Part shown: positions 14,763-29,981 of the stretch, piece by piece
How positions within the stretch are numbered: position 1 is the first letter of the stretch
Layout of the letters: each line of letters starts with the position of its first letter
Assembly: GCA_937922745.1 (NCBI GenBank)
Contig: CALAJO010000015.1
Location: 1 to 34,123, forward strand
Origin: an uncultured cyanobacterium
Lineage (GTDB): Bacteria > Cyanobacteriota > Vampirovibrionia > Vampirovibrionales > JAGQHJ01
DNA length: 34,123 bases
Reading direction: 5' to 3'
The notes under the pieces: generated by a model
What the model was told of the DNA's origin: nothing
The model's input: the letters and a program-made list of their open reading frames with translations, nothing else
Databases searched by the model: none
Program-made: the position numbers and the translations under genes

Positions 14763-16313
14763 GTGAAACTGATCCCCAACCTGACCCCGATTGATAACAA
14801 AGCGATTGAAGAACTGGGCATTCCTAGTATTTTGCTGATGGAGGAAGCCGGGCGGCGGGTTGCCTTGCGGGTTCATCGCCTGGCTGAAGATATGAAGCTT
14901 AAGCTGCCGCAGGTTACCGTCATCTGCGGCAAGGGGCGAAACGGTGGCGATGGGTTTGTGGCGGCGCGCCGGCTGGCCATGATGGGGACTTGCCAGGTTG
15001 CGGTGATCCATGCCGCCCCGGTGGAAGAAATGGCCGGGGATACGCTGGTGAACTTTAACCTGCTGAAGCATTACCCCATTACGCTTTACTACGGCATGAT
15101 GCACGATCACCTGGCGGATTTGCTCAGCCGCTCGCATATTGTGGTGGATGCACTTTTTGGCAGTGGCCTATGCCGCCCGATTGAAGGCAACTACCGCGAT
15201 TTGGTGAATGCCATGAATGATTGCGGCGCATTTAACGTGGCCGTGGATGTCCCCTCCGGTATCCATAGCGCAACGGGAGAGGTACTGGGTGTGGCCGTCC
15301 AGGCGGATTTCACCGTGACGTTTGCGGCGCCCAAGCCGGGATTGTATCTCCATCCGGGGAAAAGTTGCGCAGGCATTGTGGAAGTGGTGGATATCGGAAT
15401 CCCGCCCATGCTGATTGAGGAGGATCCCAGCCGGATTTTCCTCGTAACACCACACATGGTAAAAAACCGCCTGCCACGTCGCAAAGGATTGTCCCACAAG
15501 TATTCCTATGGCACGGTGTTAGTGGTTGCGGGTAGCCGGGACATGCCGGGTGCTGCCGCCATGACCGCGGAGGCCGCCTTGAAAGCCGGGGCCGGTATTG
15601 TGGTTTTGGCCTGCCCGGCCAGTGCTTTCCAGCGGATGCAGCTCTCTTCGGAAATCGTCTGCCTCTCTCTGCCGGAAACCGATGAAGGGGTGATTGCGCC
15701 GGAAGCGTTCGAGACGCTGCGCTTTAGCTGGAACCGGGTTCACACGGTGGCCATTGGCCCCGGCATGACGCATCACCCTTCCGCCGTGCAGTTTATGGAC
15801 AAGTTTCTCAATTACCTGCGTTTCGACTTTGACGGCCCGGTGGTGATTGATGCCGATGGCCTGAACTGCCTGAGCATGATGCAACAAACGCCCGCCCTGT
15901 CCTCCCGGTTTATCCTTACCCCGCACCTTGGCGAATGCTCCCGTCTGATCCCGATGGACAAGGCTGCCATACAGAATGATTTGCTGGCAGCCTGCCAGCG
16001 CACGGCGGAAAAATACAAGGCCACCATGGTTTTAAAGTCCGCCTCAACCGTTATTTTCGGCAGCAACCAGCGCCACTGGATCAACCCCACCGGCAACCCG
16101 GGGATGGCGACCGCCGGCAGCGGGGATATTTTAACCGGCTTTGTCGCCGGGCTTTTAGCGCAAGGCCTTGCGCCCGACCGGGCGGCAAGGGTAGGCGTCT
16201 ATCTCCATGGCCTGGCCGGAGACAAAGCGGCAGACGAACTGACCCAATACTGCCTTACGGCAACCGATCTGATCCGGTATTTGCCGCAGGCAATCCAGCA
16301 GTTGCAGCCCTAG
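14763..16313 (+). CDS. nnr: Bifunctional NAD(P)HX epimerase/dehydratase
   Basis: Nnr repairs hydrated NADH and NADPH. The N-terminal YjeF domain (1-215) interconverts the R and S epimers; the C-terminal ribokinase-like domain (about 225-510) dehydrates S-NAD(P)HX using ADP. Visible signatures are CGKGRNGGDGFVAAR in the epimerase domain, VDALFGSGLCRPI and VDVPSGIHSATGE. In the dehydratase domain they are VLVVAGSRDMPGAA, VVIDADGLN, LTPHLGE and the nucleotide motif NPGMATAGSGDILTG. At 516 residues it has the full family length. The start is GTG with GAGAGG upstream. The downstream HEAT-repeat gene begins five bases after the stop, so both form an operon, though no functional tie is known. Confidence 0.95.
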   Translation: MKLIPNLTPIDNKAIEELGIPSILLMEEAGRRVALRVHRLAEDMKLKLPQVTVICGKGRNGGDGFVAARRLAMMGTCQVAVIHAAPVEEMAGDTLVNFNLLKHYPITLYYGMMHDHLADLLSRSHIVVDALFGSGLCRPIEGNYRDLVNAMNDCGAFNVAVDVPSGIHSATGEVLGVAVQADFTVTFAAPKPGLYLHPGKSCAGIVEVVDIGIPPMLIEEDPSRIFLVTPHMVKNRLPRRKGLSHKYSYGTVLVVAGSRDMPGAAAMTAEAALKAGAGIVVLACPASAFQRMQLSSEIVCLSLPETDEGVIAPEAFETLRFSWNRVHTVAIGPGMTHHPSAVQFMDKFLNYLRFDFDGPVVIDADGLNCLSMMQQTPALSSRFILTPHLGECSRLIPMDKAAIQNDLLAACQRTAEKYKATMVLKSASTVIFGSNQRHWINPTGNPGMATAGSGDILTGFVAGLLAQGLAPDRAARVGVYLHGLAGDKAADELTQYCLTATDLIRYLPQAIQQLQP

Positions 16314-16317
16314 CCTT

Positions 16318-17022
16318 ATGGAAACCATTTATATCAAGCGGCAAACAGGGCGTAGCGGACAGACACAGTATGTCGTCCCGGCGATGGGCATTCGCACGCG
16401 CGAAGGCGTTCGGTTGATTCCCCATCCCTACGGGACGGAAACCACTTCGTACGATGACCTGGAACAAGCTGTCAGCCACATTCACCGGGCCGGTTTCGCG
16501 GCAGAGTTTGATGGAAAGCATTATCCTCCCAGCGGGCGCGCCATTGTTTCTGCACCCAGGCCAATGCCCACCAGGAGCCAGGGAACACCCATCAGCGTGA
16601 CGATCCAAAATGCCTTGCCCCTGCTTCATCAACAGTTGAAAGATGCCCAGCCGGGCGTGGTTGCGAGCGCAGCCTTTGCCCTTGGGGAAATTAAGGATGA
16701 GACGGCTTTACCCGGCCTCATCCACGCCTTTAGCAACGATGACCCCACCGTGCGCAAGCATGCCGCGGAAGCCCTGGCGAAAATCGGCAAGCCCGCCGCC
16801 AACGCCATCCAGATGGCCTTGAAAGACAAAAGCTGGGTTGTTCGTCATACGGCGCTCACCGCCATTTACGAACTGATCCATATTGAACTGGAGCAGATTC
16901 CGGCCCTGCTTCCCGATGTCGTTCCGCTATTAAAGGATGATACCTGGTTGGTCCGCAGCCAAGCCGCCACCGTCATCGGCGAAGCCACCCGCGTTTTTAA
17001 CAATTTACTGGAAAAGGAATAA
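16318..17022 (+). CDS. HEAT-repeat protein
   Basis: This 234-residue cytoplasmic protein has two parts. Residues 1-90 are a basic domain of unknown type (METIYIKRQTGRSGQTQYVV, then IPHPYGTETTSYDDLEQAV). Residues about 98-230 are helical repeats of the PBS-lyase/HEAT kind: LKDAQPGVVASAAFALGEIK, FSNDDPTVRKHAAEALAKIG, LKDKSWVVRHTALTAIYEL and LKDDTWLVRSQAATVIGEA. That gives four recognisable units. HEAT scaffolds bind other proteins or, in phycobilisome relatives, chromophore-bearing proteins; no specific partner is visible. It is co-transcribed with nnr. Its stop lies five bases from the convergent end of the RFG-protein operon. Confidence 0.85.
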   Translation: METIYIKRQTGRSGQTQYVVPAMGIRTREGVRLIPHPYGTETTSYDDLEQAVSHIHRAGFAAEFDGKHYPPSGRAIVSAPRPMPTRSQGTPISVTIQNALPLLHQQLKDAQPGVVASAAFALGEIKDETALPGLIHAFSNDDPTVRKHAAEALAKIGKPAANAIQMALKDKSWVVRHTALTAIYELIHIELEQIPALLPDVVPLLKDDTWLVRSQAATVIGEATRVFNNLLEKE

Positions 17023-17027
17023 GCAGG

Positions 17028-17495
17028 TTACTTACGTTGGCCTTGCCATTCCACAATTCCATCAGACGATTCACTGCAACCCGTGCGATCGTATAGTGTG
17101 CCAAGGCGTTCTTCTATCGTGTCAAACAAGTCATCCATTGCCGGATCTTCCGGATCATATTTTGCCACAATCCGATATGAATCTGGTTCGACTCGAGCGA
17201 TAATCCCATCGCTTATTGCAGCAGCGCGAGCTTCTTCAACTGGTAGTTCCTTGTCACCAGGCTCATCCATTACCTGGAAGACGGTTTCACCAGGCTTCTG
17301 TCCGGTTGGCGCAAATGAGATACGAAATGTATCAAGAGGGGTTTGAGGAGAGGCAGGGGCCGTTCGACTCATAAAGACATCGGTTAAGGCTTGTGCAACT
17401 GCTACCCGTGCAGGCTGATCTGCGGCATCCGCCCGGAGCAATACGCTGCGATGCTGACCAAAGCGGGTTAAACTCGTATTAAAAGAAATCTTCAT
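17028..17495 (-). CDS. RFG-motif paralog A, unknown function
   Basis: A 155-residue protein, third of three tandem paralogs. The N-terminus MKISFNTSLTRFGQHRSVLL has the shared RFGQ(R/H)R motif, followed by a helical segment, a beta segment and the block ETVFQVMDEPGDKELPVEEA, which is nearly identical to that of paralog C. The end is acidic and helical (PAMDDLFDTIEERLGTL). There is no signal peptide or membrane helix. The start ATG 17493-17495 has AGGGA upstream; the frame is open further 5' without a ribosome binding site. It is 60 bases downstream of paralog B on the same strand. No known family was recognised. It closes the operon and converges on the HEAT-repeat gene. Confidence 0.75.
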   Translation of the reverse strand: MKISFNTSLTRFGQHRSVLLRADAADQPARVAVAQALTDVFMSRTAPASPQTPLDTFRISFAPTGQKPGETVFQVMDEPGDKELPVEEARAAAISDGIIARVEPDSYRIVAKYDPEDPAMDDLFDTIEERLGTLYDRTGCSESSDGIVEWQGQRK

Positions 17496-17555
17496 GTACT
17501 TTTCCCTAAACAAATGAAACAAGAGAATTAAACCAAACATGCTTTTCAAATGCGT

Positions 17556-18047
17556 TTAAAAAGACTTTTCTGAATCCTTTGGCGTTACTTTTGATTGGCG
17601 TTCACCGAGCCATAAAATGCCATGACGCAATACATCCGGCCCTTCCACCTTTTTGTAAAGCTGTATGAGTTTGGCAGCAATGGTGTGATACATGGTTTTC
17701 ATTATGGTATCTGCCGGCTCAAAAGCCTTTGTGACAAGCAGCAAGCCTTCCCTGGCACTAAACATAATACCCTTGGAGAGCGCTTCTTCCCTGGCCTCGG
17801 GGATTGAAAGATACGTGTCCTGTGGGTTATCCAAAAGCTGAATTACTTTGTCTGCAGGGTGCCCGGGATCGACTTCAGCTTTGAATGTAAAATATGCGCT
17901 CTTCCCAAGTTTTGCGCCTTGAATTTTTGCATCCGTCCATGCCTCAAAAACGGCTTTGACGGCTTGAACATCATCTGCACCGTTGCGAACCAGAATACAT
18001 CGCCGCTGCCCGAAACGAGGCTGTAGAGATAAATGCGAGACTTGCAT
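17556..18047 (-). CDS. RFG-motif paralog B, unknown function
   Basis: A 163-residue protein, the middle and most diverged of three paralogs. It opens MQVSHLSLQPRFGQRRCILV. The central block has drifted to VIQLLDNPQDTYLSIPEARE against FQVMDEPGDxxLPVExA in A and C, but the positions of the conserved proline, aspartate and alanine still align. The C-terminus is basic rather than acidic. Its ATG shares a base with the stop codon of paralog C (TAATG, 18045-18049), a sign of translational coupling. No homologous family of known function was recognised. Since fold-defining positions are kept but charges differ, the copies may have distinct partners or form a hetero-oligomer; this is inference. Confidence 0.75.
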   Translation of the reverse strand: MQVSHLSLQPRFGQRRCILVRNGADDVQAVKAVFEAWTDAKIQGAKLGKSAYFTFKAEVDPGHPADKVIQLLDNPQDTYLSIPEAREEALSKGIMFSAREGLLLVTKAFEPADTIMKTMYHTIAAKLIQLYKKVEGPDVLRHGILWLGERQSKVTPKDSEKSF

Positions 18048-18478
18048 TAGGATTCTCCTTCGCGTAGTGGCTTTCGATTTAAGAGCCGCCGCGCCAGGGC
18101 CTCAATGCGCTCAAATAACTGCACCATACCGTGATCATCGGACGGATAGTTCACGGCAGTACCATAACTATCCGCTGTAATGGATACGACCAGGCCCTTG
18201 TCATACGCTTCATTCTTCGCCATCTCAACCGGCAAGGGCCTGTCTCCCGGTTCATCCATCACTTGGAAGATCGTTTCCTGGAATTCCCCTCCGGGATTAG
18301 AGGCTACCTCAATCTGAAAAGAAGCGGGCGATGTCGCACCTTTTTTTTGACCATAAAAAACATCATAAATATCGTGAAGCACCTTCTCCTGGAGGGTTTG
18401 GTGCGCTGCTGCCGTGCGCAGCAGAATGGCTCTTCGCTGGCCAAAGCGAGGGGATGATAATGCAGGGGCGCTTAACAT
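18047..18478 (-). CDS. RFG-motif paralog C, unknown function
   Basis: A 143-residue protein, the first of the three tandem paralogs. It opens MLSAPALSSPRFGQRRAILL. The conserved block is ETIFQVMDEPGDRPLPVEMA, then a stretch with DSYG aligned to DSYR in paralog A, and a helical end (MVQLFERIEALARRLLNRK). Its ATG lies inside the end of the HAD phosphatase gene: the two overlap by seven bases (18472-18478). It is therefore translated from the same message as the sugar-activation genes upstream. There is no export signal of a known kind. The function is unknown, and the context suggests a role near surface glycosylation or motility. Confidence 0.78.
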   Translation of the reverse strand: MLSAPALSSPRFGQRRAILLRTAAAHQTLQEKVLHDIYDVFYGQKKGATSPASFQIEVASNPGGEFQETIFQVMDEPGDRPLPVEMAKNEAYDKGLVVSITADSYGTAVNYPSDDHGMVQLFERIEALARRLLNRKPLREGES

Positions 18479-19143
18479 GGCAGCATACCGCTTTGCAGAT
18501 GCGGAATCATGTCATCCAGCCGGGTGAGGTCACACAAGGCGTCGGCCGGAAGGGGTTGATGGGCGTTCGTAGGGTTGACCACCTTTATCACGGGGATTTC
18601 GGCGGTTAATGCGGCAGCCAGGCCATCCAAGGAGTCTTCCACAGCAAGTGCTTCTTGAGGTTGTAGGCCCATGGCGTTTAGCGCCCTTAAATACGGTTCC
18701 GGATGCGGCTTATAACGGGTCACGTCATCCGCCGTCACCAGCAACTCAAAATAATCATGCCAACCGAATCGATCCAGCACATCCAGCGCCAAACGCTTAA
18801 ACGCGGATGTGACCAACGCCATGCGAATATTATTTTCCGACAGGAAGCGAAGCAGCTCCGGCCCGCCCTCGGTCGGCAGGGCATACGTGGTATAACACGT
18901 CATTACCTTGTTGTGGTAATGGTTCAGCAAGTTCTGTACATCCGGCTCCAGGGAGTATCTCATTTTCAAAATTGCAGCAACCTGAGATAACGTAGTGCCG
19001 CTGAGTTCGCCAAACTCTGCCTCGCTTCCCTCATGCCCAAAGTCCGCCAGGAATTCGCGGTAAACCCCGTATAAAACCGGCAAGCTGTTGACCAGCGTCC
19101 CATCCATATCGAATAACACCGCCTTCACCGGGCTTAACTGCAT
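18472..19143 (-). CDS. HAD-superfamily sugar phosphatase or mutase-like hydrolase
   Basis: This 223-residue subfamily I HAD hydrolase resembles phosphoglycolate phosphatase and beta-phosphoglucomutase. Motif I is VLFDMDGTLVNS with nucleophile D12 and acid D14. Motif II is the threonine/serine of ALVTSAF, motif III is the lysine in RYKPHPEPYL, and motif IV is AVEDSLDGL. A helical cap lies at about 20-85. The likely substrate is a phosphorylated sugar or nonulosonic acid, since a phosphatase step occurs in nonulosonate and heptose activation. That assignment rests on the neighbours. ATG 19141-19143 is chosen because GGAG is eight bases upstream; the frame extends to 19185 without a ribosome binding site. 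It lies 122 bases after spsF. Confidence 0.85.
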   Translation of the reverse strand: MQLSPVKAVLFDMDGTLVNSLPVLYGVYREFLADFGHEGSEAEFGELSGTTLSQVAAILKMRYSLEPDVQNLLNHYHNKVMTCYTTYALPTEGGPELLRFLSENNIRMALVTSAFKRLALDVLDRFGWHDYFELLVTADDVTRYKPHPEPYLRALNAMGLQPQEALAVEDSLDGLAAALTAEIPVIKVVNPTNAHQPLPADALCDLTRLDDMIPHLQSGMLPC

Positions 19144-19265
19144 GGGCTTTCTCCAGGCTGAACAATTTGCGGCATTGGCGTCCATCTCCAGTGTTCCTCA
19201 TAATGGGATGAGCATACCAACATTGCCATGTTGTTGCAATCACCTTTAAGATTTGAAAATGTTGT

Positions 19266-20009
19266 TTAAAGTGTTTTCTTCCAGCTTTTCTGCTGGATAT
19301 TGGCGTTCAGTGCCGCCCACTCAGGGTGTTGCGAGAGCAAGTCTATAATATCCTGCAACCCGAACGCAGGGTTCTGCGGATAGAGATGCTCGAAAATGCG
19401 GCGAATCAGTTCAAAATCTTCCGGCGTGTCCAGCGTCAGCCGATAAGGCGGATAAGCCTTTTGCGAGACATACTGGGCTTGCGCAAACCGCTCTGGATGG
19501 CAATAGATGTAAGGCGTCACATGCTCTTTCTCGCCTGGCTCGGTTGCCTCCCGGTATGTTCTTTCCAACGCGCCCAATGAAAAGACTTCCGCATCCATCC
19601 CAATGGGAAAGGTGCGTTGCAGGGAGTTGGAGACGTACTGGATTTGCGGTTGCCGGGCCTGGTAGTGGCGAATTATCGCATCCACAATGTCCGGATCGAT
19701 CAGCGGGCAATCGCTACAGATCCGAAGCACTGTATCCGCCCGGTATTCTTTTGCTGCCTGGTAGAACCGTTCCAGCACATTATGCTCATCCCCGCGAAAG
19801 AAAGCGACCCGGTTCTGCTTACACCATGCCACAATGGCATCGTCGATAGGCTCCACGGTTGTGGCGATCACCACCTCATCCGCCTGCCGAACCCGGTGCA
19901 GCCGCTCGACCAGGTGCCCTAGGATTGGCTTTTCCAGCACGGGCATCAACACTTTTCCCGGCAGGCGGGTGGAACGCATACGGGCCTGAACCAGAATAAC
20001 CGTTCTCAT
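19266..20009 (-). CDS. SpsF/KdsB-family cytidylyltransferase
   Basis: This 247-residue protein belongs to the cytidylyltransferase group that makes CMP-activated acidic sugars (spore-coat SpsF, related to KdsB and NeuA/PseF). The nucleotide-binding N-terminus is VILVQARMRSTRLPGKVLM, and the following VVIATTVEPIDD and RICSDCPLIDPDIVDA fit the metal and base-binding elements. There is no membrane segment. It lies 14 bases downstream of the PseG-like gene and in the same operon as the Maf glycosyltransferase, so it probably supplies the donor sugar for protein glycosylation. The actual sugar is unknown. The start has a normal ATG at 20007-20009. Complete. Confidence 0.88.
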   Translation of the reverse strand: MRTVILVQARMRSTRLPGKVLMPVLEKPILGHLVERLHRVRQADEVVIATTVEPIDDAIVAWCKQNRVAFFRGDEHNVLERFYQAAKEYRADTVLRICSDCPLIDPDIVDAIIRHYQARQPQIQYVSNSLQRTFPIGMDAEVFSLGALERTYREATEPGEKEHVTPYIYCHPERFAQAQYVSQKAYPPYRLTLDTPEDFELIRRIFEHLYPQNPAFGLQDIIDLLSQHPEWAALNANIQQKSWKKTL

Positions 20010-20023
20010 TTGTCTTGCCTGTT

Positions 20024-21064
20024 CTACCGCGAAGTCGACGGGATGCGCTCGGTTTTTAAAACCAATTCCGCCATGCGTGCCGACCCTTCCGCATTCATCA
20101 GCGCGAGGCCGTTTTGCCGCATCCGGTTCCGCCGCTGCTCATCGGTTAATAGCTGTGTTACCTGGTCATAGACATGCTCAGGCGTCAGGGTTTTTCCCCA
20201 GCCCAAGTTCTCTGCTGTGCCGTAATGCACAAATCGCGCCAAATCGTCTTCCTGGTTCTGGTAATGCGCCATCACCATGGCAGGAACCCCGAGGAAAGCA
20301 AACTCATAGGCCGTCACGCCCAGCGCCGTAATCCCCAATGTGGCGCGCGCCATCAGCGGGCGAAGCGACTTGACCCGCCAATGCAACGTAATGGTGGAAG
20401 GCAACCGGGTGGCAATGTTTTCCAGGTTTTCCGGGTGCGGGTATGCCGGCGGAACGATTAAATCGATATGGCAATCGCGCAAGTCCTGCAACGCTTCCAG
20501 CAGCAACTCGGATCGCTGCTCCGGATCCCGGCCGCCGAGGGTAATTAAAATGGTGGGCCTATCCAAATCCGAGCCGGGTTCATCTTCTTCCGCGCCATAG
20601 AGGAAGTTGTGGCCCAGCACGATATAATCCGCGCCCTGGTAAACCGGTTGCCCCGGCTGGTGCCACGTAGTGCCGGGCAGCGAATGGACATTGGAGAACA
20701 CCACCCCATCGGCTTCGGAACAGCCCAGGCCGTTATTATTGATGACCATTACCGGCAACGTGGGATGGGAAATGCGCAAGCGTTGAATCAAAGTAGGCGT
20801 CACCGGGTTCTGGAAATCGATGACCAGGCGGTTATATACCCCTTGTCGAATCGTCTCATGCAGGCTCCAGCTATTTTGGATGACGGAAAAACCGCATTGC
20901 AGCAACTCCCGATGAATTGCAGGGTTGGGCGTATCCACCCAAAAGGATACATGGGCCTGGTGTTCCTGGATGAGCGCCTTTGCCAGCGTTTTGCACCGCT
21001 CCATACGACCCAGCCCATAGCTGCCGCCGGCTTGGATCGCAATCAAAACTTGGAGGGCTTGCAT
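20024..21064 (-). CDS. PseG/SpsG-like glycosyltransferase-B protein
   Basis: This 346-residue GT-B-fold protein resembles PseG, which removes UDP from an acetamido sugar in pseudaminic acid synthesis, and the spore-coat SpsG. The N-terminal signature that in PseG reads GxGHxxRC is here YGLGRMERCKTLA (16-28), so the histidine considered catalytic in PseG is arginine. The C-terminal half has the expected nucleotide region ILITLGGRDPEQRSELLLEAL and LGITALGVTAYEFAFLGVPAMVM. The change suggests it is not a typical UDP-hydrolase and may be a transferase or a related activity. It begins 43 bases after the Maf gene and precedes spsF by 14. ATG 21062-21064. Confidence 0.75.
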   Translation of the reverse strand: MQALQVLIAIQAGGSYGLGRMERCKTLAKALIQEHQAHVSFWVDTPNPAIHRELLQCGFSVIQNSWSLHETIRQGVYNRLVIDFQNPVTPTLIQRLRISHPTLPVMVINNNGLGCSEADGVVFSNVHSLPGTTWHQPGQPVYQGADYIVLGHNFLYGAEEDEPGSDLDRPTILITLGGRDPEQRSELLLEALQDLRDCHIDLIVPPAYPHPENLENIATRLPSTITLHWRVKSLRPLMARATLGITALGVTAYEFAFLGVPAMVMAHYQNQEDDLARFVHYGTAENLGWGKTLTPEHVYDQVTQLLTDEQRRNRMRQNGLALMNAEGSARMAELVLKTERIPSTSR

Positions 21065-21107: not shown

Positions 21108-23144
21108 TCAACTTGCAACGGCCGTAACCATTGTATTGGATTTTTCTCCGTTAGCCGCTTGTGTATCAGCCGAGGGTGGATACGCCGGGAATGACTCAAA
21201 GACAGGCTCCAATGTCTCGCGCAAGGCTTTGGCGCCCTTTTCGATGGCATTGTAGAGCTTCTCCGTCATCTCGAAGTTGTCTGTCAAAGCATCCACGTCG
21301 CCTGCGGCCACTTCGTTTTTCTCAAACCGGAGTTTGCGCTCGTATAACTTGGTATACTCCATCAAGTCTTTCTTGATGTAGCAGTTGATTAACATATTGC
21401 TCCGCGTCAACGCTTTAAAGTCGGTATCATATTGGGCCAGCTTTTTCATACGGCTTTTTAGGGAGCCGGTAATGGTTTTCTTTTTGGATAGTTCGTCCTT
21501 GGCCCGCTTTAGCTCCGATTTTGCCTCCACAAGAAGGCTTTCCAGCTTTAATAAATCCTCGTGGTCTTTCTGGTAGCTGTCGTAAACGTTCTGGTAGGCT
21601 TCGCTGAAAAATTCGCGTTCGGTATATTGCTCAGACAACAGGGACTCCAGTAGTTGCGGCCCCTGGAATTGTTTTACATTATATTTTTCCAATGCTTCGA
21701 CAAAAGGCAGGTGTTCCATGCCATTGATGAGCGCCCCTCCTTCGGAGCAATTAACCAGGTTATGTTCTGGCTGTTTCATTTGAATCTGCTCAAAAACCTT
21801 GCGGAAACCATCGTAAGCCGGTGTGGTAAACAGCGTTTCGCCATGCCAGCCCTTGGTTTCCACCATTAGTTTTTCAAAGTGCCTGCGCTTGAAGGTTTGC
21901 CAGTCTGCGTCATCCTTAAAAAAGCCTTCCTTACCGTAGAACTCGCTGGCGTTGGCCATTTCCACAATCTTTTCGCCATTTTCGTTAATCGTAAAGCGGC
22001 AGCCTTGGTATACGGAGTTATCGGAGTACATCTTCCCTTCCGGGTAAGCTAAATCCTGCCCCAGCAGAAAGACCGGGTCGCACCCCAGCAGCATCAGGTG
22101 GATTAGGGCGGTTACGGATACCGTGCCCTGGTGGTTGTAGCCGTATAAATTCTGTTTTAAAACCCGCGACAGCCATTCCGTCATCGGATCGCGCATGTTG
22201 TAGGTAATCAGCTTGCGCTTGGCCTGCACATCGTAAATGCTGCCATGCACCTGGGGTAACAGCGTTAAATTCACCTTATCCATAAAAGAGACGCCATTGA
22301 TCTGCGGGGAAACGTTTTTTACCTCAACAAAGCTCACAAAATCCGGGATGATACCGGCCTTGTCCAGCGCCCTGGCGGCCTGCCCAACGCATGCAATAAT
22401 CAGGTGTTCCCGGTTGGCTTTCAACGCATCCAGCACACCCGGCCTATCCAGGGAAGGGCCGGCGGAAACCACCACGCCCGGCATGCCTTTAAACTTGCCA
22501 TGCAGGAATGAGGCATCCGGATACTTTAATAAATTCGGCAGATTGTTGATTGAACTGCGGGTGAACTGCTCCAAAGCATAAAGAACGGTATTTTGCCCGA
22601 TAATGGTGGTGAAAATACTGGAGCGAAGCTCATCCAAAACCTGTAACAAAAGTTGCGGCTCCAGCGTACGGTAAGAAGGCAACGGCAGCGTCTTGAATTT
22701 ATCACCCAGCAGGTAGGCATTTTGGAAGTTGCCGATGATGTTTTCCACTTCGGTAATAATTCGAACACGTTCGGAGCGAAGCTCTTCCGAGAAATCCACC
22801 GCCTCCAGGGTTAAGCGCAGCACGTCCAGGTAAGGTTCAAACACCAGGATTTGTCCCTTGGTGTTAACATAGGCCCGACGCAAGAGATATCCCAGGCCAA
22901 TGCCGAACATAAACAGGTTGCAGTCGTAACTGCGGCCCTCTTCCGGCACCTGTTCCTCGAAGATTTTCAACGCCTCGCCCATGGGGTCGTCAATATCGTG
23001 GAGGGCAATGCCATTGTAGGCAATATTAATATCGTTATGCGGCCCCATAAACAGGCTTACATTGGGGGATAACTCCATTTCCTGCAGTTTTTGTGCCAGC
23101 CGCGGATGGGTTTCTCTCAAGGCGCTCAGATTTTTTTCAAACAT
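21108..23144 (-). CDS. Maf/DUF115-family motility-associated glycosyltransferase
   Basis: This 678-residue protein is of the Maf type (DUF115, also listed as 6-hydroxymethylpterin diphosphokinase MptE-like). Maf enzymes transfer nonulosonic acids such as pseudaminic or legionaminic acid to flagellin in the cytoplasm. Visible elements are FGIGLGYLLRRAY (80-92), the core motif MPGVVVSAGPSLDRPGVLDAL (221-241), IACVGQAARAL with IPDFVSFVEV, and LLGQDLAYPEGKMYSDN. A coiled coil lies at about 535-600. ATG 23142-23144 matches family N-termini (MFEKNLSAL) and has AAGGA upstream; an ATG at 23189 lacks one. First gene of a six- or seven-gene operon with sugar-activation enzymes. Flagellin itself is not in the window. 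Confidence 0.88.
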   Translation of the reverse strand: MFEKNLSALRETHPRLAQKLQEMELSPNVSLFMGPHNDINIAYNGIALHDIDDPMGEALKIFEEQVPEEGRSYDCNLFMFGIGLGYLLRRAYVNTKGQILVFEPYLDVLRLTLEAVDFSEELRSERVRIITEVENIIGNFQNAYLLGDKFKTLPLPSYRTLEPQLLLQVLDELRSSIFTTIIGQNTVLYALEQFTRSSINNLPNLLKYPDASFLHGKFKGMPGVVVSAGPSLDRPGVLDALKANREHLIIACVGQAARALDKAGIIPDFVSFVEVKNVSPQINGVSFMDKVNLTLLPQVHGSIYDVQAKRKLITYNMRDPMTEWLSRVLKQNLYGYNHQGTVSVTALIHLMLLGCDPVFLLGQDLAYPEGKMYSDNSVYQGCRFTINENGEKIVEMANASEFYGKEGFFKDDADWQTFKRRHFEKLMVETKGWHGETLFTTPAYDGFRKVFEQIQMKQPEHNLVNCSEGGALINGMEHLPFVEALEKYNVKQFQGPQLLESLLSEQYTEREFFSEAYQNVYDSYQKDHEDLLKLESLLVEAKSELKRAKDELSKKKTITGSLKSRMKKLAQYDTDFKALTRSNMLINCYIKKDLMEYTKLYERKLRFEKNEVAAGDVDALTDNFEMTEKLYNAIEKGAKALRETLEPVFESFPAYPPSADTQAANGEKSNTMVTAVAS

Positions 23145-23396
23145 ACAACCACATTCCTTCTCTTCTGCTTCGCTTTTTTCTCCCATCACGCCGGCAAAAT
23201 GCCAAAACGCACGGATAACAGTCCATCCTTCATGATAGGGGCTGCCCCTGCCATTTACCTCACATATTTACTGTAATTTCTCTTCAGGCTCGCCCAAGGA
23301 TTCATCCCCCTCCATTGCACTCAGATATTTTGCCCGGCACAAAGTTCCGAAAAATAGTTTTTATATTTATAGGGGTATACCAGGGGATAAAGATCG

Positions 23397-26699: not shown

Positions 26700-27326
26700 C
26701 TAGGCAAAGCGTCTGTATTCAGTCCAATCGCCGTCTTTATATCGTTCGATCCGCGCCACATCCTGCAAAGTATACCCGCCTACTAAATAATATTCCCTTT
26801 CGGTGGCGTTTTTTTCCTCGGTATGCGGACGATTAGGCTCGGCACGGAGGACTGGATCAAATTTGTCTTTTGGTTTGAACGTCACGCGGTACTTTCCTTC
26901 CCGTCCAACTTTTGCATAATTCGGGTTATCCGTAATATCGGTTCGAAAGCCCCCATGGGTTGAACGGTCGCTATTCACCCGCTCCCCGGAAAGTAAGCGC
27001 GTTAACTCGGCTTCGTCAATCAATCGGTACATGGTTCTTTGGGTTTTCCAATCCAGTTGTGGCGCTGCATTGGCTTCCGGTCCTAATATGCTTCCCAACC
27101 AATTCGATACCGTACTTTGTGTATGCTCCATTTGGGCAATGGCGTCAGGCTCTCCCCGCCGGGCAGCCTTAACCAGGTTATTGTAAGCAAGATCTTCCGG
27201 GTCTGTGGTAATCATCTCATCTTCATGCAACGATGCAAACCTCACTTGCCTGAGTGGCACAGCAATAGGCTGAACTTGTTGAACATCGGAAGATTTTGAA
27301 ATTGACAACGGATGCAGCATATCCAT
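26700..27326 (-). CDS. Unknown 208-residue soluble protein
   Basis: No family was recognised. The N-terminus contains PLRQVRFASLHED, loosely like the RFG-motif proteins elsewhere in the window but with alanine in place of glycine. The middle is helical and polar (NNLVKAARRGEPDAIAQMEHTQ). The C-terminal half is basic and Tyr-rich with beta character (GREGKYRVTFKPKDKFDP, EYYLVGGYTLQDVARIERYKDG). No export signal or membrane segment is present. AGGAG lies five bases upstream of ATG 27324-27326, so expression is likely. It is divergent from the arginine dihydrolase pair and 136 or more bases from the microprotein. Confidence 0.7.
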   Translation of the reverse strand: MDMLHPLSISKSSDVQQVQPIAVPLRQVRFASLHEDEMITTDPEDLAYNNLVKAARRGEPDAIAQMEHTQSTVSNWLGSILGPEANAAPQLDWKTQRTMYRLIDEAELTRLLSGERVNSDRSTHGGFRTDITDNPNYAKVGREGKYRVTFKPKDKFDPVLRAEPNRPHTEEKNATEREYYLVGGYTLQDVARIERYKDGDWTEYRRFA

Positions 27327-29316: not shown

Positions 29317-29341
29317 GCTTTGTGGAGGGGTTCCACAAAGC
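29317..29341 (+). promoter_or_regulatory. 5'-terminal mRNA hairpin
   Basis: GCTTTGTGGA (29317-29326) pairs perfectly with TCCACAAAGC (29332-29341) around GGGGT. It falls between the putative promoter and the ATG at 29370 and has no following T-tract, so it is not a terminator. Hairpins at the very 5' end stabilise bacterial messages; that role here is inference. Confidence 0.55.
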
Positions 29342-29369: not shown

Positions 29370-29981
29370 ATGTTATCTGCCGTTAGATTTGGCGCTCAGT
29401 ACCGATTTGTGCCACATAATACCGTGAATCCGCGTGAGATGTTTGATCGCTCCCGTTGGGACGATGAAGATGAGCCCGGAATGGATGCCAGAACATTTAA
29501 CGATTATTTCCGACATATCCTGGCACAAAGGCAAATCAGCGTCCAAAAGCCTTGGGATCAATTTTTGAAAATTAATGAGCAGACGGCGGAAATTATCCTG
29601 GATACGGATAGCCCAGATAATACCCATACATCTATCGCTGCCGACAAGAGTGTCCTTAAGGCGTTTTCCTGGGTCCTCTTTACCTTAACCGGCGACAGAA
29701 CCTTTTTTGACAAGGTCAAACAGCTGCTGGCTCAAGCCGACAAGCAAAAAACGTATCCCTCTAATACCGCCGATATCAGCGATGAAGAACGCACCTTTGT
29801 TTTTAAGCAGGATATTCTCCGGGAATCAATTATTGGTGAAATGCAAGACATGACGGGCTGTAATGAAGCCCCCGTCCGAAGAAGACGGCCCAGAGCAACG
29901 GCGATGCCAGCCGCAGATGGTGGTAATACCGGCAGAGTTCACTTTTCTACGATAACCGTTAGCCCAAACCATATTGCCTAG
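29370..29981 (+). CDS. VRFG-motif protein, unknown function
   Basis: A 203-residue protein that begins MLSAVRFGAQYRFVPHN. The MLSA and RFG elements echo the start of paralog C at 18478 (MLSAPALSSPRFGQRR), although the rest of the two proteins does not align. The body is polar and helical (ARTFNDYFRHILAQRQ, KSVLKAFSWVLFTLTGDRTF). A basic cluster, VRRRRPRA, lies near residue 170, followed by a Gly/Ala-rich tail. No signal peptide or membrane segment is seen. ATG 29370 has AAAGG about seven bases upstream, better placed than for the ATG two codons earlier. Its stop codon abuts that of the convergent Gln-rich gene, with no base between. Confidence 0.72.
   Translation: MLSAVRFGAQYRFVPHNTVNPREMFDRSRWDDEDEPGMDARTFNDYFRHILAQRQISVQKPWDQFLKINEQTAEIILDTDSPDNTHTSIAADKSVLKAFSWVLFTLTGDRTFFDKVKQLLAQADKQKTYPSNTADISDEERTFVFKQDILRESIIGEMQDMTGCNEAPVRRRRPRATAMPAADGGNTGRVHFSTITVSPNHIA

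What the first reader, a model, noticed from the sequence alone, without database searches (positions are those of the whole stretch)
17028..18478. Three tandem paralogs of an unrecognised RFGQ(R/H)R protein family inside a glycosylation operon
Three consecutive genes encode 143-163-residue proteins that share an N-terminal RFGQ(R/H)R motif. Paralogs A and C also share a block FQVMDEPGDxxLPVExA and later DSY and LFxxIE positions, while B is strongly diverged. They are coupled to the Maf-PseG-SpsF-HAD genes by a seven-base overlap and a TAATG junction. Duplicate-and-diverge arrays in an operon often form hetero-oligomers or multiple effectors. No family of known function is recognised, so this could be a new accessory set for flagellar or surface glycosylation.
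Basis: partly seen in the sequence, partly recalled or inferred. Interest (0 to 1): 0.72.

Follow-up and report, generated by a model that had tools for sequence, protein, structure and literature searches.

The report
Orphan protein trio with shared leader
Three neighbouring genes encode related small proteins found in no other genome searched, and the short opening sequence they share (RFG) recurs at the start of many unrelated proteins in this bacterial group, which points to an undescribed address label rather than to sugar-coating helpers.

Summary
A (17028-17495 -), B (17556-18047 -) and C (18047-18478 -) are diverged paralogs (31% A-B, 41% A-C identity) at the end of a Maf/PseG-like/SpsF-like/HAD operon, with the stated junctions. 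They match no family and occur in no other genome searched. The glycosylation reading rests on position alone: a same-family Maf operon lacks them. The RFGQ(R/H)R block is not special to this family. In own-genome samples RF[GAS] is over-represented at residues 5-46 of small proteins (27 vs 12.1 expected without the trio), and this repeats in four other genomes of the order (24 vs 7.2, P 7e-7). Permuted motifs, other phyla and class families without FlhA show no excess. The motif sits on unrelated proteins, including ankyrin-repeat proteins and N-terminal extensions of a DeoC aldolase and an M29 peptidase. I read it as a modular leader, probably a sorting signal. The most likely receiver, inferred only, is a second FlhA-type export apparatus; in the own genome it lies beside three genes with leader-like N-termini. 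Type IV secretion, microcompartments and encapsulins are argued against. What A, B and C do after sorting is unknown.

The parts
18047..18478 (-). Paralog C, 143 aa, first of the trio in transcription order; leader MLSAPALSSPRFGQRR
   Evidence: AF2 model pLDDT 71.9, residues 1-13 below 50
17556..18047 (-). Paralog B, 163 aa, most diverged; leader MQVSHLSLQPRFGQRR; good Shine-Dalgarno (AAGGAG)
17028..17495 (-). Paralog A, 155 aa; leader MKISFNTSLTRFGQHR
   Evidence: AF2 model pLDDT 73.7, pTM 0.71, residues 1-13 below 50
18431..18478 (-). N-terminal leader of C (16 residues, ends RFGQRR)
   Evidence: direct translation; RF[GAS] excess in N-termini
18000..18047 (-). N-terminal leader of B (16 residues, ends RFGQRR)
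   Evidence: direct translation
17448..17495 (-). N-terminal leader of A (16 residues, ends RFGQHR)
   Evidence: direct translation
18472..19185 (-). HAD-family phosphatase (PF13419), overlaps C by 7 bases
19266..20009 (-). Cytidylyltransferase (PF02348, SpsF/KdsB-like)
20024..21064 (-). PseG-like protein (TIGR03590, E 1.2e-24, below cut-off)
21108..23189 (-). Maf-type protein (MptE-like PF01973 plus Maf_flag10_N)
26700..27326 (-). Unrelated 208-aa protein with leader-like N-terminus ending ..LRQVRFASLHEDE
29370..29981 (+). Unrelated 203-aa protein starting MLSAVRFGAQ (alternative GTG start at 29322)

Best explanation
A, B and C are small soluble proteins made of two parts: a disordered N-terminal leader of about 16 residues carrying the RF[GAS] motif, and a two-layer alpha/beta body that diverges quickly. 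Shown: the leader is a recurring, position-restricted element on many unrelated proteins of this order. Inferred: it is a sorting signal that sends its carriers to one shared destination. Inferred and less sure: that destination lies outside the cell and is reached through a second, non-flagellar FlhA-type (type III) export apparatus, so A, B and C would be secreted proteins that happen to be expressed from the glycosylation operon. The C-B-A array would then be a duplicated and diverged set of such substrates, like the tandem ankyrin-repeat array with leaders in relative G003. My odds: shared modular leader 0.85, sorting signal given that 0.55, type III export given that 0.5.
For: 1) RF[GAS] at residues 5-46 of proteins up to 450 aa: own genome minus the trio 27 vs 12.1 expected from the rest of the same proteins; four other genomes of the order 24 vs 7.2 (P 7e-7); permuted motifs are at expectation in both sets; 67 loci of other phyla 13 vs 18.1. 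2) Carriers are unrelated: the tag-less A/B/C profile finds no relative among 487 proteins, and the carriers include ankyrin-repeat proteins, GDPD and DeoC. 3) It can be added to a known enzyme: DeoC of G003 (..ATAIRFGAKK..) and of G002 (MKVYSITPIAYRTNGDTRFSGA..) have extensions with the motif; the own-genome DeoC, many other orthologs and a second DeoC of G003 do not. An M29 peptidase has its Pfam domain from residue 153 of 531, after ..QQAPRFGTQ. 4) Leaders are disordered in the models of A and C and, set-wide, richer in Ser (11.3 vs 6.3%) and Gln (9.1 vs 5.2%) and poorer in Glu (2.9 vs 5.4%) than length-matched controls. 5) FlhA: 16 of 17 other genomes of the order have at least two matches; families f4 and f9 have none and no RF[GAS] excess (4 vs 5.1). 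The second own FlhA is 61-66% identical to Gastranaerophilales ones; f6, f7 and f8 have FlhA but no flagellin. Beside it lie genes starting ..KTRFSGS..APRFGTQ and ..VPQFSAAKK.
Against: No secretion or localisation data exist. Known type III signals have no fixed sequence motif (own knowledge), and RFG lies anywhere from residue 4 to about 45. A DeoC aldolase is an odd cargo for export. The FlhA correlation rests on a few families; f6 genome G035 has FlhA but no leader excess, and f6 uses a different motif ([NSQ]F[TKG]G, 6 vs 1.0). Clustering beside the second FlhA was noticed after the fact and seen in one genome only. About 40% of motif hits in the own genome are expected by chance, and gene starts come from my own simple caller.
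Confidence: 0.45

Rival explanations
1. The leader is an intracellular docking peptide: it binds its carriers to a common scaffold or membrane site of the cell, without export.
For: Metabolic and housekeeping-type carriers (DeoC; M29 peptidase) make more sense inside the cell; the motif is short and its distance from the start varies, as in docking peptides.
Against: The two obvious shells are not the receiver: no microcompartment protein in 19 genomes; an encapsulin exists in the own genome but not in G003, G004 or G009, which do show leaders. No candidate hub was found.
Confidence: 0.3
2. A, B and C are accessory proteins of the Maf glycosylation pathway, and the shared N-terminal motif is incidental.
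For: Seven-base overlap with the HAD gene and the one-base overlap of C and B suggest co-translation with the operon.
Against: No relatives elsewhere; Maf operon of G001 lacks them; different GC3 from the operon; motif shared with unrelated genes far away.
Confidence: 0.12
3. The trio is a chance acquisition or young gene family without a settled role (phage- or element-derived ORFans), and the leader excess is a compositional bias of small ORFan N-termini.
For: Restricted to one genome; atypical GC3.
Against: Codon-position pattern shows protein-level constraint; no PHROG or viral-contig match; permuted motifs of the same composition show no N-terminal excess; the motif also sits on extensions of conserved enzymes.
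Confidence: 0.13

Closest known systems
Type III secretion substrates (N-terminal, uncleaved, disordered signals)
   Same: N-terminal, predicted disordered, Ser/Gln-rich and Glu-poor leaders on unrelated bodies; ankyrin-repeat carriers in G003; a probably non-flagellar FlhA present
   Different: Carries a recognisable motif RF[GAS], which classical type III signals lack (own knowledge); export not shown
Encapsulin and microcompartment cargo peptides
   Same: Short peptides added to unrelated enzymes
   Different: Shell proteins absent in leader-bearing genomes G003, G004, G009
Type IV secretion as proposed for Vampirovibrio chlorellavorus (PMC4451040)
   Same: Same bacterial class; proposed route for effectors
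   Different: VirB4/TrbE family absent in G000, G003, G004, G009 and most of the order; VirD4-type signals are usually C-terminal (own knowledge)
PDB 3ueb, TON_0450 of Thermococcus onnurineus
   Same: Best fold match of the C model, probability 0.90-0.96 in four of six chains, small alpha/beta protein
   Different: E-value 0.02 or worse, TM-score 0.38-0.44 by query length, function unknown; not significant

Membership tests
Type III secreted protein | N-terminal disordered signal without Sec/Tat features | tested here: met
   Residues 1-13 pLDDT below 50 in A and C; no hydrophobic stretch in the first 16 residues by sequence
Type III secreted protein | A type III export apparatus is encoded in the genome | tested here: met
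   Two full FlhA/SctV genes in the own genome; the second lies with FliF- and FliH-like genes
Type III secreted protein | Export depends on that apparatus | not testable with these tools
   Needs a bench test
Maf glycosylation accessory protein | Co-occurrence with Maf genes across genomes | tested here: inconclusive
   No homologs anywhere; Maf operon of G001 lacks them
Maf glycosylation accessory protein | Sugar-enzyme or glycosyltransferase domain | tested here: not met
   No Pfam or NCBIfam match
Type IV secretion effector | Type IV secretion ATPase in leader-bearing genomes | tested here: not met
   PF03135 absent in G000, G003, G004, G009
Microcompartment cargo | BMC shell protein in the genome | tested here: not met
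   PF00936 absent in 19 of 19
Encapsulin cargo | Encapsulin in leader-bearing genomes | tested here: not met
   PF04454 in own genome and G011 only; absent in G003, G004, G009

The most novel reading that the evidence does not exclude
Vampirovibrionia use an undescribed N-terminal address label, [P/V/T/A]-R-F-[G/A/S/K] in Vampirovibrionales-like genomes and perhaps [NSQ]F[TKG]G in Gastranaerophilales, that sends dozens of otherwise unrelated proteins per genome to a flagellum-derived, non-flagellar type III apparatus; A, B and C are three such cargoes.
Probability: 0.22. Interest if true: 0.85.

Novelty: new variant of a known kind. Interest (0 to 1): 0.55.

Why it matters
Many proteins that Vampirovibrionia may use against algae, or in animal guts, are unannotated. 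A short recurring leader would let anyone list the sorted proteins of these genomes by sequence alone and test one delivery route. It also bears on the partial flagellar gene sets of Gastranaerophilales, which earlier papers read either as motility or as incomplete flagella (PMC5877343): here flagellin-less genomes keep an FlhA that resembles the second FlhA of flagellated relatives, which suggests a separate machine.

Tried and rejected
Glycosylation accessory role: not supported by relatives. Known family: none. Fold match: none significant for A or C. Type IV secretion, microcompartment and encapsulin receivers: argued against. Remote paralogs of the trio among 487 sampled proteins: none. 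A first look for over-represented tripeptides at N-termini with a crude gene caller did not single out RFG, and one caller trimmed the leaders of A and C; the count that matters uses start choice by ribosome-binding site, which still trimmed C. De novo k-mer search in f6 genomes gave no clear motif. DNA pattern CGNTTYGGNCARMGN in the own genome gave no excess over the reversed control, so the longer RFGQ(R/H)R string itself is family-specific. Papers held: none found that describes such a leader.

Full report
Check of the observation. A, B and C are present as described. Identity is 31% (A-B), 41% (A-C) and 26% (B-C). The seven-base overlap with the HAD gene and the TAATG junction are exact. 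Codon positions 1 and 2 are conserved well above position 3, so these are constrained proteins and not chance ORFs.

Family. Pfam, NCBIfam, PHROGs, PADLOC and PDB sequence searches give nothing. Searches of the own genome, 58 genomes of the class (including all 17 others held of the order), the GTDB contigs and viral contigs return only the three genes themselves; two weak matches at E 0.065 and 0.079 cover part of the profile and lack support. As far as searched, the family is confined to this genome. AlphaFold models of A and C agree on a leader without structure (residues 1-13) followed by strand-helix-strand-strand-helix-strand-strand-helix. Foldseek finds no significant PDB match; the best, 3ueb of unknown function, reaches E 0.02.

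Context. The operon is Maf-like, PseG-like, SpsF-like cytidylyltransferase and HAD. In G001, of the same family, the trio Maf-PseG-SpsF is followed by other genes; G002 and G003 have a PseG homolog in a different setting. GC3 of A, B and C is lower than in the operon. Position alone therefore ties them to glycosylation. The class is Vampirovibrionia (formerly Melainabacteria), judged by the named Gastranaerophilales records that are nearest to the second FlhA; the order is probably Vampirovibrionales (inference).

The motif. Other proteins in the window and in sampled stretches of the genome begin in the same manner: a short Ser/Gln/Pro-rich stretch and then RFG, RFA, RFS or RFK, for example MKIGFQAPRFGLT, MNVSAIQAPRFKAN, MSLAVHPTTPRFKGV, MLSAVRFGAQ, MQLPGISTSKTRFSGS. 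I counted RF[GAS] at residues 5-46 of proteins up to 450 aa and took the expectation from the rest of the same proteins. Own genome without the trio: 27 vs 12.1 (P 1.6e-4). Four other genomes of the order, not used to form the idea: 24 vs 7.2 (P 7e-7); most of this excess comes from G003 (14 vs 4.0) and G009 (5 vs 0.2). Permuted motifs stay at expectation. Families f4 and f9: 4 vs 5.1. Loci of other phyla: 13 vs 18.1. In f6 the analogous [NSQ]F[TKG]G is 6 vs 1.0 for G020 and G035 pooled; the near-identical [RNSQ]F[TK]G is 6 vs 0.8 in G020 and 0 vs 0.2 in G035. This second pattern was suggested by the same data and is exploratory.

What carries it. At least some hits are chance, such as arginase or ribosomal protein S17, where the motif is part of the domain. 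The rest are mainly proteins without a family. In G003, five tandem ankyrin-repeat genes (L136:190-5335) start with related leaders of about 35 residues; four have RFG and one reads ILRGG. DeoC is the cleanest case: in G003 and G002 the enzyme has an N-terminal extension with RFG or RFSG, while the own-genome copy, many orthologs and a second DeoC in G003 lack it. This is what a movable label looks like.

Where it might lead. Every genome of the order but one has two FlhA matches or more; f4 and f9 have none. Flagellin is absent in f6, f7 and f8 although they keep FlhA. The second FlhA of the own genome (L144:14141-16255) is 61-66% identical to FlhA of named Gastranaerophilales, lies beside FliF- and FliH-like genes, and next to it are three genes with leader-like N-termini, two with RF[GS] and one with QFS. 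I infer a second, non-flagellar type III apparatus and propose it as receiver. Against this stand the fixed motif, the DeoC cargo, and the small number of independent lineages. Type IV secretion, microcompartments and encapsulins do not fit the distribution.

Verdict. The motif belongs to a wider, apparently undescribed N-terminal element. The link to glycosylation is unproven. The sorting function, and type III export in particular, is inference.

Noticed in passing
L144:14141-16255 (-), own genome contig C157: Second FlhA/SctV gene with FliF-like (18354-19994) and FliH-like (16261-16995) genes, 61-66% identical to FlhA of Gastranaerophilales; class families f6, f7 and f8 have FlhA but no flagellin, so this may be a non-flagellar type III apparatus.
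   Followed up: partly
L136:190-5335 (-), genome G003: Five tandem ankyrin-repeat genes with related N-terminal leaders of about 35 residues (consensus near MIxxIQPxF..AFxSxK..DSVxIRFG).
   Followed up: partly
L139:7847-8659 (-) and L272, genome G003: Two DeoC aldolases in one genome, one with and one without the N-terminal RFG extension.
   Followed up: yes
L144:11353-12948 (+), own genome: M29-type peptidase with a 150-residue N-terminal extension that includes QQAPRFGTQ, close to the second FlhA gene.
   Followed up: no
own genome contig C4:10712-11512 (-): An encapsulin (PF04454, E 8.7e-66), absent in the other genomes held of its family; among the relatives searched only G011 has one.
   Followed up: no
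genome G020, contig C6:10760-11788 (-), and the like in other f6 genomes: Second FlhA-like ORF of about 500 aa that matches only the C-terminal half of the FHIPEP profile.
   Followed up: no
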